A stretch of 5,268 bases of DNA, from positions 1-5,268 of the forward strand of contig JAKBRR010000152.1 in assembly GCA_021845325.1 (NCBI GenBank), given 5' to 3'. The first letter of the stretch is position 1. The number at the start of each line of letters is the position of its first letter. Made by a program: the position numbers and the translations under genes. This document shows, in pieces, positions 1-5,268 of the stretch. A model generated the notes under the pieces. That model was not told the origin of the DNA, did no database searches, and saw only the letters and a list, made by a program, of their open reading frames with translations. This DNA comes from Thermoplasmata archaeon. Its GTDB lineage: Archaea > Thermoplasmatota > Thermoplasmata > Thermoplasmatales > Thermoplasmataceae.

Positions 1-1073
1 TCTGATATACTCTCATGTGATAACTTGTAATAATCTATATTCTCATCCTCACCGCGTAGGAACTTTCTGCTATTTGTTCCAAGTGGCACAAAGAATATTT
101 CTCTTTTCACATTGTGATAGGTAAGGTTTACGGGTAACCCAATTTCCCTTAAAGCGCTCTGAATTATCGTTCTCCTGTTTCTAATTCCACTGCCCCATGA
201 TGGATTTTTCTTCCAGGATATCGCTGACTTGCCTATCTTATAAAGCTCATCATACACACCATTAATGAATTGAAACTCACCCGATCCCTTAGTCCATCCA
301 ACGTGTAGAAATTCTGTTCCATTAGGTATTCGTATTCTGTCATATAAGGAGCTCTTACCCAAAGCGGACGCGGTAGTGATTCCAGCAAGTCTCCCATCGA
401 AGACTTTTCCTGATATTCTGGAAACGCTGCCATTGTATTTTTCACAAAATCTTTCCCTTAGCATAGGAGAAGATATCAGAGCTGCGACAAGTTTACCGCC
501 AAGAATGGCCGAGTATGGTGGAACAGCACCTAGTACAAAAGCATCCATAAGATGCCTAAGCTTCTCTTTCTTTACATTGTAAGACCACCCTATATACAAT
601 TCTCTATCGTGCAGGGCAAAAACGGGGTCACCTAAACCTATAATGCCGATAACTGCCTCATTGTTACCATCTTTTACTATATACCGTAGCCTACGTCCAT
701 ATCCACTTGATATAGGCACAGACCAATGAAGCTTGATCCAGTTGAAAAGATCAGCTTTTTCCTTATCATCTACCTCGACAAGAACGGGGTCTATTTTCCT
801 TACATTAAGATTTATTCCATCAATCATATATTTATCTATAAAAAGGTCGTCTTTAAAGATTAAATCAGATTTTTTATTCCTTAAGAAGTCAATAGCCGTT
901 TTGTTAACCTTCCTGTAGTATTCCTTATCATTAGGCACTATAAGTTTGCCGTCTTCACCTATCGTGAAGCCCGTTTTAATAAGACTCTCTATAACAGTTT
1001 CCCTTAAACTTTTGTTGTAAATTGAATCGTTATTAATATATATATTTTTATTTTCCACAATAATCCACTTCAT
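1..1073 (-). CDS. DUF4338 / DruA-like defence-associated protein, C-terminus outside the window
   Basis: Open frame of 357 codons without a stop, cut by the left window edge, so the 3' end is missing. It starts with ATG at 1073-1071, 11 bases after the herA stop, with no clear Shine-Dalgarno sequence, and is the third gene of the nurA-herA operon. The N-terminal part (residues about 22-60) has the family's opening pattern, a basic helix, a 'GF' and a lysine/arginine-rich 'KEYYRKVN' stretch. The core matches what I recall of DUF4338 proteins: GYGRRLRY (124-131), IGLGDPVF (145-152), YIGW (160-163), GAVPPYS (182-188), LGGKLVA (191-197), SALGKSSLYDRIRI (236-249), and near the end VPLGTNS and FLRGE (338-342). 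DUF4338 is the DruA family of Druantia anti-phage systems, whose molecular activity is not known to me. Probably only a few tens of residues are missing. No frameshift or internal stop is seen. Family assignment is by memory of motifs, not by alignment. Confidence 0.82.
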   Translation of the reverse strand, partial: MKWIIVENKNIYINNDSIYNKSLRETVIESLIKTGFTIGEDGKLIVPNDKEYYRKVNKTAIDFLRNKKSDLIFKDDLFIDKYMIDGINLNVRKIDPVLVEVDDKEKADLFNWIKLHWSVPISSGYGRRLRYIVKDGNNEAVIGIIGLGDPVFALHDRELYIGWSYNVKKEKLRHLMDAFVLGAVPPYSAILGGKLVAALISSPMLRERFCEKYNGSVSRISGKVFDGRLAGITTASALGKSSLYDRIRIPNGTEFLHVGWTKGSGEFQFINGVYDELYKIGKSAISWKKNPSWGSGIRNRRTIIQSALREIGLPVNLTYHNVKREIFFVPLGTNSRKFLRGEDENIDYYKLSHESIS

Positions 1074-1084
1074 TACACACTAAA

Positions 1085-2869
1085 CTATTTGCCTAACGAA
1101 TTATAGAACTTAGTCTTTACTGCGAATTCCTTTCCCTCTGAATTCTGTTGAATATTGCCGTTTTTCCTGAGATATCCCTTTTCGTCTTCAGTAAGTGATT
1201 TATATAGTTCTACTGTTTTTTCGGAAATTTCTCCTTTTGATCTTTCAACATTCTGAAATTTAGTTCTTATGTTCTGCATTATTGCATCCTCCTGTCTTAT
1301 TTCTTTTAGTATGGGGCCAAGGAGATCTATTTTAACCCGCTCATTTGATATAGCTTTTTTCACTTTATCCTTGAAATAATCGATATTGACTGGTATAACA
1401 AATGGCTGTGTAGACGTCCACATATAGCATTTACCCTTAATAGGCTCGCTAAGTATCTGTGTAAGTATATCATCTGAATAGTGAGCATTTGCCTTTTTGA
1501 GACTTTCTAAATCACCTCTACTAAGTAGGTGGAATACAAAGAAATTATCAGCCTGACTGAGAATTTCAAATGGTATGCTTCCAGGCTGCTGTGTTATAAA
1601 TATTGCCCCAAGGCCGTACTTTCTCCCCTCCTTTGCAAGCTCTATGAATGAATAGTCACCAGACCGTTCATCCAACACCGATTGCGCCTCCTCCACCACA
1701 AAAGTGGCTTTTATGAGTTCCTTATTCTCATCTGTAAAATGTCTTTGGTTTTCACTGAATATGTATTTGATTATGAGTGAACTTAGTTGTAGTGCGGTAT
1801 GACTATCCAGCAATGAAATATCAAATATTACCACCTCTTCCTTTACAAGCGCTTGGATTATTATATTAAGCAGGTTTGAATCTTTATCATGCATTTTAGA
1901 AATAGGAGTCACGAGATTATTAATCACAGGTCTCATATTCTCATCTTCATCTTTTCCAATAACTATAGCTGCTATTTCCCCTAAATCTGCCTTGAATCTC
2001 TTTTCGCTCAGATAATCCACCAAATCAGACCATTGTTCTTTGCTCATACTCATAAGCTTTGAGAAAAAGATAGTTTCGTGTTTTGCTTGATTTACAATTA
2101 AAGGAATTACCATTTCTGGGTCTAAATCTTTTAGGTTGATCTTTAGATGCCTGTAAACATTAGCTTGATTGGAATCAACAATTCTGTTGGTTATTACTAT
2201 GGCAGGTCTTGAGTCTGTTATACCCGGCTCATTTTTATTTTGAATGGCATATTCCCCCTCTGGATCGAATATGAGCAATCCACCCTCACTCCTAGGCCAG
2301 GCGTTTGCTATGATCTTCATTAAATTGCTTTTCCCATATCCCGCCCGTGCAAAGATGAAAGTTCTCTTAGAGTTCAGATCGGAGACGTTAAATTTTATAT
2401 CAATAGATTCATCCATATAGAATTTACCTATTTCCGTTCCTGCTTGTTGAGCGTCGTTCACGGCGTTGATTATAGCTCTTGTCTGTTCTGCATCGGGTCT
2501 GATAACGTTGCTGGTTATATGCGGAATTCTGGATACTCCTGGCTTAAACTCTCGGCCGTTGAGACTACCAAGAATCTTTATTCTCACATTGTATCTTATC
2601 TTTCTTTCCTTTATATCGAGACCTATCGCCTCTGCATCGTTAGAAACATCTCCAAGCCATTTTTGACCCATAAATGACATTAATTCTCCGGTCGGCTTAT
2701 AATCGGTTACCCTCGAGACAATGTAATCACCAATACTGTCTATTAGGAGATAATCACCGACTCTAATAGAAAAATGTGATTTATATGGTGCTATGATCGT
2801 TGCTATATACTCGTATGTTGCGCTCTCTAATCCAATGAACATACCTATTATGTCACCTTTACTGGCCAT
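1085..2869 (-). CDS. herA: HerA-family DNA translocase ATPase
   Basis: Protein of 594 residues, a FtsK/HerA P-loop ATPase expected to form a hexameric ring that pumps double-stranded DNA, usually into or with a NurA nuclease. Seen in order: an N-terminal HAS-barrel-like beta region (IIGMFIG at 7-13, VGDYLLID at 37-44), Walker A with GYGKSN (K180, S181), the HerA signature FDPEGEY (201-207), Walker B with VVEEAQ (E393, E394) and the sensor-like TQQPG (426-430). A lysine- and glutamate-rich helical tail of about 90 residues follows. I chose ATG at 2869-2867: it follows a G-rich GGTGGTGG stretch, overlaps the nurA stop by 11 bases, and leaves only a few residues before the barrel, as in HerA. 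An upstream GTG at 2887 would add six residues. The overlap implies translational coupling with nurA. HerA normally works in DNA end resection with Mre11/Rad50; neither is visible here, and the DruA-like neighbour points to defence instead. Confidence 0.92.
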   Translation of the reverse strand: MASKGDIIGMFIGLESATYEYIATIIAPYKSHFSIRVGDYLLIDSIGDYIVSRVTDYKPTGELMSFMGQKWLGDVSNDAEAIGLDIKERKIRYNVRIKILGSLNGREFKPGVSRIPHITSNVIRPDAEQTRAIINAVNDAQQAGTEIGKFYMDESIDIKFNVSDLNSKRTFIFARAGYGKSNLMKIIANAWPRSEGGLLIFDPEGEYAIQNKNEPGITDSRPAIVITNRIVDSNQANVYRHLKINLKDLDPEMVIPLIVNQAKHETIFFSKLMSMSKEQWSDLVDYLSEKRFKADLGEIAAIVIGKDEDENMRPVINNLVTPISKMHDKDSNLLNIIIQALVKEEVVIFDISLLDSHTALQLSSLIIKYIFSENQRHFTDENKELIKATFVVEEAQSVLDERSGDYSFIELAKEGRKYGLGAIFITQQPGSIPFEILSQADNFFVFHLLSRGDLESLKKANAHYSDDILTQILSEPIKGKCYMWTSTQPFVIPVNIDYFKDKVKKAISNERVKIDLLGPILKEIRQEDAIMQNIRTKFQNVERSKGEISEKTVELYKSLTEDEKGYLRKNGNIQQNSEGKEFAVKTKFYNSLGK

Positions 2870-3965
2870 GTCCACCACCAAGTACACCCTTATCTACAGA
2901 CTCTTTTAACATATATGAATTCTTGAGGAATTCCTTTGTATCACTGCTCATCATCATAGTCATTTTTTCAATTATTTTATCCTTAATAATACTCGCCGGT
3001 AAGCCCACTCTAGCTGCAGCCTCATGTGCCCTCATTATAGTTTGGGGATAACCAATGACGGGATAAGAATGAGATGAATCCTTTGCCAGATGTCCCATTA
3101 TTCTATTGATATCATCTTTATTATAAATATCTTCATCATTTTTTAAATCCCTTGGAATCTCTACAGTAACCAGCAGATTGCTGTTCCTAGCGAGCTTTGC
3201 AATATAAAGATCTCCGAATGCATAATATATACTTTTATTACTCTCGGATATCTTGCCCTTCCCTGTCCATTTATAAGTCTGAATCTCTAAATCTTTTGGG
3301 ATTTTAATGAAGCCAATTTTGTCTGATGGGATTATATGCTCCACAAAGACTGCTGAGGATAAAAGTGTCAATATCTTCGAGACTTTTGAAACACCAACAA
3401 GCTTGACATAGTTTCTTTTGTCTTTTAAGGTATTGACCAGTATCGGAATTAGTTCAGACTTCAACTTTTTTGTCCTCAAAAGTCCATCCCTCATGATTAC
3501 TATTGGCTCGTCTTTCTGATCCATAATTCTTTCAAATAGGCAGGCCCATTCAGATATTTCCATATAAGTACCGCTATCTGTTAATATTTCTGAGATATCT
3601 TTGAGGCTTTTCTGATTGAGCAAATTTAGAAATTTAGCTATAATAGGTTCATTGTCAAGATAATCGATATTGCCTTCTATATTAACATCTTCGTCCGACT
3701 TAGGAACTAAAAACCTCATTTTCAGATTTCCGTAAGAATCAGCTACTTCTACTAAGTCAATTTCCAATGGGTCAAATGAAATGTTCATTTTTCCTCCATC
3801 TATAGCCTTATACGTCACAGTTTGATAATTTCCTACTGGGTCTATTGGAACAAATTGAAGCGTCTTTACTTTCTGTCTTAACTCATTAAACTTACCCACC
3901 TGATTTTGTATAACTTCATTTATATTGCCTATATTTTCAACATCGGTATCATTAGGGTCAATCAA
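2859..3965 (-). CDS. nurA: NurA-family nuclease
   Basis: Protein of 368 residues, diverged but recognisable as a NurA-domain nuclease (RNase H-like fold, manganese-dependent DNA end processing, partner of HerA). Visible marks: AIDGG with D56 as the first metal-binding aspartate, IVIMRDGLL with D160, LVGVSK with K194, and the C-terminal GYP...RAHEAA segment (305-317) with H314 in the place of the family's conserved late residue. An N-terminal coiled region of about 35 residues precedes the domain. Acidic residues between D56 and D160 that would complete the site cannot be placed without alignment. No ATG lies near the N-terminus (first internal Met is residue 59 or later), so the start is TTG. 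I chose the TTG at 3965-3963 because GAGGA (3979-3975) lies 9 bases before it; another TTG at 3974 is flush against that GAGGA. It is first in the operon and overlaps herA. Family confidence comes from motifs plus the herA neighbour. Confidence 0.85.
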   Translation of the reverse strand: MIDPNDTDVENIGNINEVIQNQVGKFNELRQKVKTLQFVPIDPVGNYQTVTYKAIDGGKMNISFDPLEIDLVEVADSYGNLKMRFLVPKSDEDVNIEGNIDYLDNEPIIAKFLNLLNQKSLKDISEILTDSGTYMEISEWACLFERIMDQKDEPIVIMRDGLLRTKKLKSELIPILVNTLKDKRNYVKLVGVSKVSKILTLLSSAVFVEHIIPSDKIGFIKIPKDLEIQTYKWTGKGKISESNKSIYYAFGDLYIAKLARNSNLLVTVEIPRDLKNDEDIYNKDDINRIMGHLAKDSSHSYPVIGYPQTIMRAHEAAARVGLPASIIKDKIIEKMTMMMSSDTKEFLKNSYMLKESVDKGVLGGGHGQ

Positions 3966-3974
3966 ATAAAACAA

Positions 3975-3998: not shown

Positions 3999-4012
3999 TT
4001 ATATATAAATTT
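3999..4012 (-). promoter_or_regulatory. TATA box of the nurA-herA-druA-like operon
   Basis: Minus-strand AAATTTATATATAA. Its centre lies about 30 bases before the first possible nurA start and about 40 before the chosen one. This suits an archaeal TATA box giving a transcript with a very short leader that holds the GAGGA site. The surroundings form an imperfect AT-only palindrome (3996-4012), which may be chance in such AT-rich DNA. No operator with mixed base content is seen beside it. Confidence 0.5.
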
Positions 4013-4263: not shown

Positions 4264-4587
4264 ATGGAATCATTCCTTTTTGACTGGTTAATAATAGAAC
4301 GATATTTGCGGAATAAATGGGAAATGTATTTGGATAAGAAACCTCTAGAAAAGCGTAGAAAAAAGAAATTAAAAAACTGGAACATAAACAATTTGCTAGA
4401 AGAATTATCTTTAAATGAAATCATAGACCAGAGAGCCTATGACGATATATCTTCTCTAAAGGAAATAAGAAATAGTCTTTATCATAAGGGAGCCGAGGTT
4501 TCAAAGCAAGAAGCTATCAAGTGCCACGAAATCAGTGAATTTCTAATTAGAGAGAAAATAAATATAGTAATTCCAGAAAAAAACTGA
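4264..4587 (+). CDS. Small HEPN-domain protein (candidate RNase)
   Basis: Protein of 107 residues, mostly helical and rich in lysine and glutamate, with no signal peptide or membrane segment. The key mark is LKEIRNSLYHKG (65-76), which holds R69-N70-x3-H74, the Rx4-6H motif of HEPN ribonucleases, in the usual place before the last helix. The first helix (residues 4-24, FDWLIIERYL) and the basic loop RRKKKLKNW (31-39) also fit the fold. HEPN proteins commonly act as toxins or as RNases within defence systems. No antitoxin nucleotidyltransferase (MNT) gene is beside it. Start: ATG after an in-frame TGA six bases upstream, with AGGA 7 bases before it. HEPN domains are often part of larger proteins, and in-frame sequence upstream is broken by stops, so this could be a truncated remnant. 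It is read away from the nurA operon and toward hsdM, 37 bases before it. Confidence 0.65.
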   Translation: MESFLFDWLIIERYLRNKWEMYLDKKPLEKRRKKKLKNWNINNLLEELSLNEIIDQRAYDDISSLKEIRNSLYHKGAEVSKQEAIKCHEISEFLIREKINIVIPEKN

Positions 4588-4624: not shown

Positions 4625-5268
4625 ATGATTAACCCTGATTCAGATCTTGAAAAGAGATTATGGTCTTCAGCTGATAAACTTCGTTCAAACATGGATGCTG
4701 CTGAATACAAACATGTTGTGCTTGGACTCATATTTCTGAAATACGTATCAGATTCCTTCGAGGAGATTCATAAAGAACTGGAGAATGACAGGGAACATCT
4801 TTCCGATCCAGAAGATCGGGATGAATACATCTCAAGAAACGTTTTCTGGGTTCCTCCGGAGGCAAGGTGGAATTACCTGCAGAGAAATGCAAAGCAGCCA
4901 ACAGTAGGAAAGATGATCGACGATGCAATGGAAGTCATAGAAAAAGATAATCCATCCCTGAAGGGAGTGCTTCCAACAAACTACTCCCGTGCATCATTGG
5001 ATAAGCAGAGACTTGGTGAATTGATAGATCTCATAGGAGGCATAGAACTGGGTACCGAAAGCGCAAAGAGCAGGGATCTTCTTGGAAAGGTCTATGAATA
5101 TTTCCTTGGACAGTTTGCAGACGCAGAGGGAAAGAAAGGAGGACAGTTCTACACTCCAAAATCCATAGTCCAACTTCTTGTGGAGATGATTGAACCATAC
5201 AGGGGAAGAGTTCTGGATCCATGCTGCGGTTCAGGCGGCATGTTTGTACAGAGCGAGAAGTTCATTCA
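4625..5268 (+). CDS. hsdM: Type I restriction-modification DNA methyltransferase subunit HsdM, C-terminus outside the window
   Basis: Open frame of 214 full codons cut by the right edge; family members are usually about 480-520 residues, so somewhat under half is present. It would transfer a methyl group from S-adenosylmethionine to adenine in the recognition site, working with HsdS (specificity) and HsdR (restriction), neither visible here. The N-terminal helical HsdM domain is clear (W13, [18 protein letters not shown] at 26-43). It is followed by GGQFYTP (172-178), the usual lead-in to the catalytic domain, and by the cofactor-binding motif [12 protein letters not shown] (197-207). The catalytic NPPF/NPPY motif lies beyond the edge. 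The ATG at 4625 begins the conserved N-terminus directly. GC is visibly higher than in the neighbours (for example about 47% in 4801-4860 against about 35% in 4441-4500), suggesting a separate origin. The hsdS and hsdR genes probably follow to the right. Confidence 0.95.

What the first reader, a model, noticed from the sequence alone, without database searches (positions are those of the whole stretch)
1..3974. NurA-HerA-DruA-like three-gene operon: candidate defence system
Seen: three overlapping or nearly touching minus-strand genes encode a NurA-type nuclease, a HerA-type translocase and a DUF4338/DruA-like protein, next to a HEPN gene and a type I restriction-modification gene. Known: NurA-HerA complexes process DNA ends, HerA with other effectors makes anti-phage complexes, and DruA is a component of Druantia. 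Inference: here a HerA-NurA motor-nuclease takes the place that the DruE helicase has in Druantia, with the DruA-like protein as sensor, targeting subunit or effector. I cannot rule out that this combination already has a name in defence-system catalogues.
Basis: partly seen in the sequence, partly recalled or inferred. Interest (0 to 1): 0.75.

Follow-up and report, generated by a model that had tools for sequence, protein, structure and literature searches.

The report
TdpAB-like nuclease–motor operon with DruA
A three-gene unit found in scattered archaea and bacteria joins a DNA-pumping motor and a nuclease to an acyltransferase-like protein called DruA, and it looks like a defence system that may mark the cell's own DNA and shred unmarked DNA.

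The parts
2859..3965 (-). NurA-family nuclease of the TdpB type, 368 aa (ORF extends to 3974; likely TTG start at 3965)
1085..2869 (-). HerA/FtsK-family translocase of the TdpA type, 594 aa (ORF extends to 2887)
   Evidence: Walker A ARAGYGKSN, Walker B LIFDPEGEY and KEGRKYG present; profile against solved structures, TdpA E 3.2e-42
3..1073 (-). DruA / DUF4338 protein, GNAT fold predicted; 357 of about 390 residues lie in the window
3999..4009 (-). Archaeal TATA-box-like TTTATATATAA about 34 nt before the NurA start: possible promoter of the three-gene operon
   Evidence: read from the sequence; not tested statistically
4264..4587 (+). Divergent neighbour: HEPN-like (DUF4145) gene, 107 aa; not counted as part of the module
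4625..5266 (+). Neighbour: hsdM, type I DNA methyltransferase, 3' open

Best explanation
An accessory, patchily distributed anti-invader module of three proteins. HerA and NurA form a TdpAB-like pump-and-shred nuclease: HerA would thread double-stranded DNA through its ring and NurA would cut both strands. DruA is a GNAT-fold acyltransferase that most likely writes a mark on the cell's own DNA, as phage Mu Mom does on adenine; marked DNA is spared and unmarked viral or plasmid DNA is destroyed. Shown here by computation: operon, conserved linkage, accessory status, TdpAB-type motor and nuclease, predicted GNAT fold of DruA. Inferred: defence function (about 0.85), HerA-NurA as the destroying arm (about 0.8), DruA as DNA writer (about 0.4; the weakest step). 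The stated confidence is for the whole chain with DruA as writer.
For: Linkage: NurA-HerA adjacent in 12 of 12 genome loci and DruA adjacent in 7 of 12, in three gene arrangements. Of the 12 genomes 10 were searched: DruA is the only full-length copy in 7 of 7 DruA-plus ones and absent from 3 of 3 others. In 292 Thermoplasmatota genomes the 3 with window-type NurA are exactly the 3 with a strong DruA match; two of the 3 were found through NurA. Of 120 DruA clusters, 21 share a longest-contig length with a NurA or HerA cluster, against 1.65 (at most 5) for shifted lengths. In Chloroflexota, 12 of 16 DruA loci examined have NurA+HerA. TdpAB type. GNAT fold; DUF4338 was called GNAT before in PMC10853773 (passage). 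Slot swap: a DNA methyltransferase on the same strand within about 330 bp upstream of NurA in 3 of 10 DruA-less pairs. [quoted passage not shown] A Thermococcus HerA-NurA digests both strands of dsDNA (PMC12977600 passages). In two closely related operons NurA and HerA are 93-94% identical but DruA only 63%, as expected of a specificity-bearing part.
Against: No sequence link between DruA and Mom: HHalign probability 0.1%, below the best of 60 column-shuffled controls. The Mom fold match is tied with ordinary acetyltransferases, and Foldseek finds nothing at E<=0.001 among solved structures. Some NurA-HerA pairs show no modifying enzyme that I recognised next door (L006, L008, L111), which a classical R-M nuclease should not tolerate unless the writer lies elsewhere. 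The DruA-plus loci L001 and L004 also carry ordinary methyltransferases, so the swap is not clean. PMC10853773 lists the DndF-fused GNAT among possible suicidal effectors acting on proteins. No experiment on this system was found.
Confidence: 0.37

Rival explanations
1. DruA is an effector or switch, not a writer: a GNAT that acylates a host or viral protein or RNA, either as back-up toxicity or to turn HerA-NurA on or off.
For: GNAT fold without a Mom sequence link. PMC10853773 interprets DUF4338 fused to DndF as a variable effector domain. Some NurA-HerA pairs exist without a recognised modifier.
Against: DruA was found with HerA or DruE in 15 of the 16 Chloroflexota loci examined, the last being at a contig end, so it looks like a core part and not an optional add-on. 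A DNA methyltransferase takes its place in 3 of 10 DruA-less pairs.
Confidence: 0.28
2. One reading: a Druantia variant in which HerA-NurA replaces the DruE helicase and DruA serves as sensor or targeting subunit.
For: DruA aligns with Druantia DruAs; 25 positions are invariant in all 24 compared, five of them Druantia DruAs.
Against: DruA models as a GNAT-like fold, with many invariant polar residues suited to catalysis. Druantia DruAs form one clade (100/100) beside several HerA-NurA-linked lineages. No DruE match in the ten type B loci, nor any ORF over 1,073 aa in the seven type A DruA-plus loci.
Confidence: 0.15
3. A Tdp-type system proper, in which the HerA-NurA reads a phosphorothioate mark made by genes elsewhere, and DruA tunes it.
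For: The closest solved relatives of both HerA and NurA are TdpA and TdpB.
Against: Identity to TdpB is only 19% over 328 residues; no sulphur-insertion gene was recognised among the neighbours scanned, apart from rhodanese genes beside two DruA-less pairs (L006, L008); not every gene was scanned.
Confidence: 0.1
4. A duplicated end-processing repair pair with no defence role.
For: HerA and NurA are ancient repair-linked partners (recalled). No second NurA was found by Pfam in 2 of 9 genomes, G003 and G009.
Against: A separate NurA-HerA operon with an Mre11-like gene exists in the three relatives read. A NurA matching the window family's profile is rare: 14 of 1,284 genomes sampled, some of them distant or picked through it. 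Restriction genes adjoin the window copy and several others.
Confidence: 0.05

Closest known systems
Tdp system (TdpA-TdpB; PDB 8wet, 8wfd; An et al. 2025, title seen only in a reference list)
   Same: HerA-type motor plus NurA-type nuclease; TdpA and TdpB are the nearest solved relatives by profile and, for NurA, by fold.
   Different: No phosphorothioate-making genes recognised among the neighbours scanned; a GNAT-fold DruA is linked instead; NurA identity to TdpB only 19%.
Druantia type I
   Same: Shares DruA (PF14236), with 25 residues invariant across both contexts.
   Different: No DruE-type helicase found; HerA-NurA takes the effector place; gene content otherwise different.
HerA/FtsK capture systems and BREX-related capture (BRC) systems (PMC10853773, PMC12839542; passages read)
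   Same: HerA motor with an effector; BRC adds a GNAT that its authors suggest may modify host DNA; DUF4338 recognised as GNAT.
   Different: The word NurA does not occur in either main text; no HerA-NurA-DruA unit in the passages read; BRC is a seven-component system built around PglZ and HerA.
SIR2-HerA (Nezha) and DUF4297-HerA
   Same: HerA paired with an effector that destroys invading DNA (table passage of PMC12948488).
   Different: Partner nuclease is NurA, and DruA is added; the HerA profile scores TdpA above every other solved HerA.
Phage Mu Mom family
   Different: No detectable sequence kinship.
Housekeeping archaeal HerA-NurA-Mre11-Rad50
   Same: Same two enzyme families.
   Different: Separate paralogous operon in the three genomes read.

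Membership tests
Tdp (phosphorothioate) system | TdpA-type HerA motor | tested here: met
   TdpA best by about 19 orders of magnitude among solved HerAs
Tdp (phosphorothioate) system | TdpB-type NurA nuclease | tested here: met
Tdp (phosphorothioate) system | Phosphorothioation genes in the locus | tested here: inconclusive
   none recognised among the selected neighbour ORFs scanned; not all ORFs scanned and no Tdp modification model used
Druantia | DruA | tested here: met
Druantia | DruE (long DEAD/DEAH helicase) next to DruA | tested here: not met
   BLAST against DruE hits only L099, L100 and the plasmid loci; no ORF over 1,073 aa in the seven DruA-plus loci. The window itself ends inside druA, so its own far side was not seen
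Housekeeping HerA-NurA | Linked to mre11/rad50 and single copy | tested here: not met
   separate nurA-herA operon with an Mre11-like phosphoesterase gene in G294, G001 and G002 (Rad50-like gene seen in G294 and G002); the window-type copy is additional in relatives. The window's own genome is not held
SIR2-HerA / DUF4297-HerA | SIR2 or DUF4297 effector | tested here: not met
   the partner is NurA; neither domain matched
Mom family DNA modifier | GNAT fold | tested here: met
   (predicted fold, tied with other GNATs)
Mom family DNA modifier | Mom sequence profile | tested here: not met
   HHalign probability 0.1%
Restriction-modification system | Self-DNA is modified and the modification blocks cleavage | not testable with these tools
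   needs DNA chemistry

The most novel reading that the evidence does not exclude
A new chemistry class of restriction-modification: DruA proteins are DNA acyltransferases (functional analogues of Mom in cells) that mark self DNA, read by TdpAB-like HerA-NurA shredders. DruA has been exchanged between very divergent HerA-NurA lineages and a helicase system (Druantia type I), which would then also be modification-based. DruA-like proteins in phages and giant viruses would be self-protection.
Probability: 0.3. Interest if true: 0.85.

Novelty: new variant of a known kind. Interest (0 to 1): 0.64.

Why it matters
DruA has no tested biochemical role in the passages I saw. A compact two-enzyme-plus-DruA unit is far easier to reconstitute than Druantia and would make DruA's activity directly testable. 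If DruA writes a DNA mark, it adds an acyl mark to the methyl, deazaguanine and phosphorothioate marks used for self-recognition. It would also show HerA-NurA to be a general destroyer that is plugged into different self-marking enzymes (methyltransferase, phosphorothioation, DruA).

Tried and rejected
Mom kinship by sequence: a nine-row Mom alignment against 56 DruAs with HHalign failed, and shuffled controls scored higher. I therefore keep only the fold-level link.

HerA C-terminal tail as a DruA-docking element: NurA and HerA are about 93% identical between L001 and L033, while DNA identity drops from the HerA tail onwards. But the tail is also present in DruA-less L006, L007 and L008, so I dropped it as a DruA-specific feature.

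Housekeeping repair pair: held unlikely. Carriage by viruses or plasmids: no relative of the NurA alignment in viral contigs; none of the window NurA or the L012 NurA in plasmids; window HerA matches in 205 plasmid records, none covering 80% of it; DruA had no match in the phage records at E 1e-5, although PHROG 19197 matches it. Absences in fold searches are not used as evidence.

Literature: no held paper contains the words HerA, NurA and DruA together, or DruA and HerA. PMC10853773 does hold HerA with DUF4338 (as a DndF fusion), without NurA. The Tdp paper and Makarova et al. 2011 are not held, so 'not found in print' means only these word searches of this open-access library.

Limits: the 3-of-3 co-occurrence in 292 genomes includes two genomes found through NurA. 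In one search the contig lengths were copied by hand from the 120-row lists (119 for HerA, one has no contig). Chloroflexota: 19 genomes with DruA, neighbourhoods examined for 16; G644, G509 and G789 not fetched. The 12 of 16 include two pairs of near-copies (L102/L103 HerA 100%, L107/L108 95%), L103 whose nurA is broken into two frames, and L107 and L108 whose DruA was recognised by Pfam, not by my own profile. L098's 429-aa candidate matched no Pfam family at E 0.01. The DruA tree has long branches and an arbitrary root. Neighbours were scanned only for selected ORFs, with no background rate. Of the ten DruA-less pairs, the upstream side of L034 is not visible.

A mislabelled row had given 5 label changes in the DruA tree; it is 4.

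Full report
WHAT IS IN THE WINDOW. Three minus-strand ORFs lie at 2859-3974, 1085-2887 and 3-1073. Homologues suggest starts at 3965 (NurA, 368 aa) and 2869 (HerA, 594 aa), so NurA and HerA overlap by about 11 bp and DruA follows about 11 bp after the HerA stop. The window ends inside DruA; a near-identical complete protein is 390 aa (P0241). A TATA-like TTTATATATAA lies about 34 nt before the NurA start. The divergent neighbours are a HEPN-like DUF4145 gene and hsdM. No whole genome is held for the window.

WHAT THE THREE PROTEINS ARE. DruA matches Pfam DruA at 9.7e-82 and PADLOC DruA at 6.2e-84. HerA matches DUF87 at 2.3e-18; its Walker A, Walker B and KEGRKYG segments are present. NurA reaches only E 0.0055 with Pfam, below the cut-off; 87 of the 120 listed relatives carry PF09376, but not the five closest. 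D59 (IDGG), D163 (RDG) and H317 are invariant in the 28 aligned rows, and its AlphaFold2 model (pLDDT 81.3) is a NurA.

ACCESSORY, NOT HOUSEKEEPING. Pfam NurA finds a second NurA away from the locus in 7 of 9 genomes searched; G003 and G009 show none. In G294, G001 and G002 the second NurA lies with a HerA and an Mre11-like phosphoesterase gene; a Rad50-like gene is also seen in G294 and G002. A NurA matching the window family's profile at E<=0.001 occurs in 3 of 292, 2 of 195, 3 of 301, 1 of 250 and 5 of 246 genomes of five phylum samples: 14 of 1,284. These include the centre genomes picked through NurA and several distant matches (two at 1e-33 to 1e-27; three near 1e-37 and one at 2e-4), so the window type proper is rarer still.

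THE LINKAGE IS REAL. A genome-collection scan with the NurA alignment gave 12 loci. HerA is adjacent in 12 of 12 (split in L007 and L008, cut by the contig end in L011) and DruA in 7 of 12, in three arrangements: nurA-herA-druA (L001), druA-nurA-herA (L003, L011, L012), and druA convergent behind herA (L002, L004, L005). L033 adds another nurA-herA-druA. Ten of the 12 genomes were searched for DruA: in 7 of 7 DruA-plus genomes the full-length copy is single and is the one at the locus (G005 has an extra sub-threshold fragment), and 3 of 3 others have none. In 292 Thermoplasmatota the three genomes with strong DruA (E below 1e-70) are the three with window-type NurA; one further genome carries distant tandem DruA-like genes and one a sub-threshold match, without it (two of the three were found through NurA). 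Matching of longest-contig lengths in the protein database joins 21 of 120 DruA clusters to NurA or HerA clusters against a mean of 1.65 and a maximum of 5 for shifted lengths; the always-adjacent NurA and HerA give 33 of 120 by the same measure.

A SECOND, DIVERGENT HerA-NurA LINEAGE WITH DruA. PF14236 occurs in 19 of 301 Chloroflexota genomes. Of 16 neighbourhoods examined (15 plus L012), 12 have NurA and HerA beside DruA (L012, L094-L097, L101-L104, L106-L108), 1 has a HerA without a recognised NurA (L098), 2 have the Druantia DruE helicase (L099, L100) and 1 ends at a contig edge (L105). Two pairs are near-copies (L102/L103, L107/L108), so 10 of 14 without them; nurA of L103 is broken. In 11 of the 12 the order is druA-nurA-herA; L106 is nurA-herA-druA. 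Ten form one HerA-NurA type ('B'). Pfam matches their NurA in all 7 scanned, at 3e-9 to 0.0052, over the cut-off in 4 of 7. Their HerA is only remotely like the window's (profile E 1.4e-8 to 3.1e-14), and the solved matches of the one tried are weak and not TdpA, whereas L106's best is TdpA (3.7e-22). In a DruA tree of 25 rows the DruAs of the window type need at least 4 label changes and those of type B at least 2 on well-supported branches, while the five Druantia DruAs are one clade (100/100). DruA has therefore been coupled to HerA-NurA more than once or exchanged between lineages. Long branches and an arbitrary root limit this.

WHY A WRITER. (1) Of ten NurA-HerA pairs without DruA (L006-L010, L034, L035, L109-L111), three have an N4/N6-type DNA methyltransferase on the same strand upstream of nurA, 253 to 326 bp from its first standard start codon (L035, L109, L110), and one has a small GNAT some 650 bp upstream (L010). 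(2) TdpAB, the nearest relative, works with a DNA-marking pathway (recalled). (3) Mom shows that a GNAT can acylate DNA bases, and jumbo-phage Mom domains are fused to nucleases (PMC7824862 passage). (4) L001 and L033 share NurA and HerA at 93-94% but DruA at 63%, the pattern of a swapped specificity component. Against: some pairs (L006, L008, L111) show no recognised modifier nearby, the DruA-plus loci L001 and L004 carry methyltransferases too, and other authors list the DndF-fused GNAT among possible protein-directed effectors. I put the writer step at about 0.4.

DEFENCE CONTEXT. Beside the window's hsdM, selected neighbours include an N6 methyltransferase and GmrSD (L001), a methyltransferase-Mrr fusion (L004) and McrBC (L005), an Eco57I-type enzyme (L096) and an OLD-type TOPRIM ATPase (L102). 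In L002, L003, L011 and L012 the few neighbours scanned were not recognised defence genes. No background rate was computed.

NOVELTY. No paper in the searched open-access library holds the words HerA and DruA, or HerA, NurA and DruA. Rakesh et al. 2024 (PMC10853773) and the BREX survey (PMC12839542) describe HerA capture systems and a GNAT-bearing HerA system, without the word NurA in the main text (passages only). PADLOC's models match DruA and generic HerA separately, and none matches this NurA. I call it a new variant of a known kind: a TdpAB-like HerA-NurA effector with a DruA partner.

Noticed in passing
L099 and L100 against L012, L094-L097, L101-L104, L106-L108: In the Chloroflexota sample the HerA-NurA context of DruA (12 of 16 loci) is commoner than the Druantia context (2 of 16), so naming DUF4338 proteins 'Druantia anti-phage system protein' in databases can mislead.
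   Followed up: partly
BFVD matches to the DruA model; PHROG 19197: DruA-like folds occur in giant viruses (Faunusvirus, Yasminevirus, Dasosvirus; Foldseek E 6.5e-17 to 7.8e-9) and in an uncultured tailed phage (5.8e-8); the matching phage family PHROG 19197 is of unknown function.
   Followed up: no
L109:6684-11128, L110:5628-10057: Methyltransferase-nurA-herA three-gene units in two genomes of the L002 phylum sample: a NurA-HerA pair with a DNA methyltransferase (75% identical between the two), possibly an unnamed R-M type.
   Followed up: partly
L001:421-4576 against L033:7885-12037: Closely similar nurA-herA (93-94% aa) followed by strongly divergent druA (63%), with the drop starting near the end of herA: looks like replacement of druA by recombination.
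   Followed up: partly
L112:2280-4705: Two tandem distant DruA-like genes (E about 1e-20) in one genome of the Thermoplasmatota sample, on a 7-kb contig without HerA-NurA.
   Followed up: no
L032:5669-14726: Haloarchaeal plasmid with a DUF4338 protein, two hypothetical genes and a gene annotated FtsK translocase: another DruA-plus-motor arrangement.
   Followed up: no
L007:2320-4203, L008:4093-6070: In two archaeal loci without DruA, herA is split by a frame break while nurA is open: possible decay, or assembly error.
   Followed up: no
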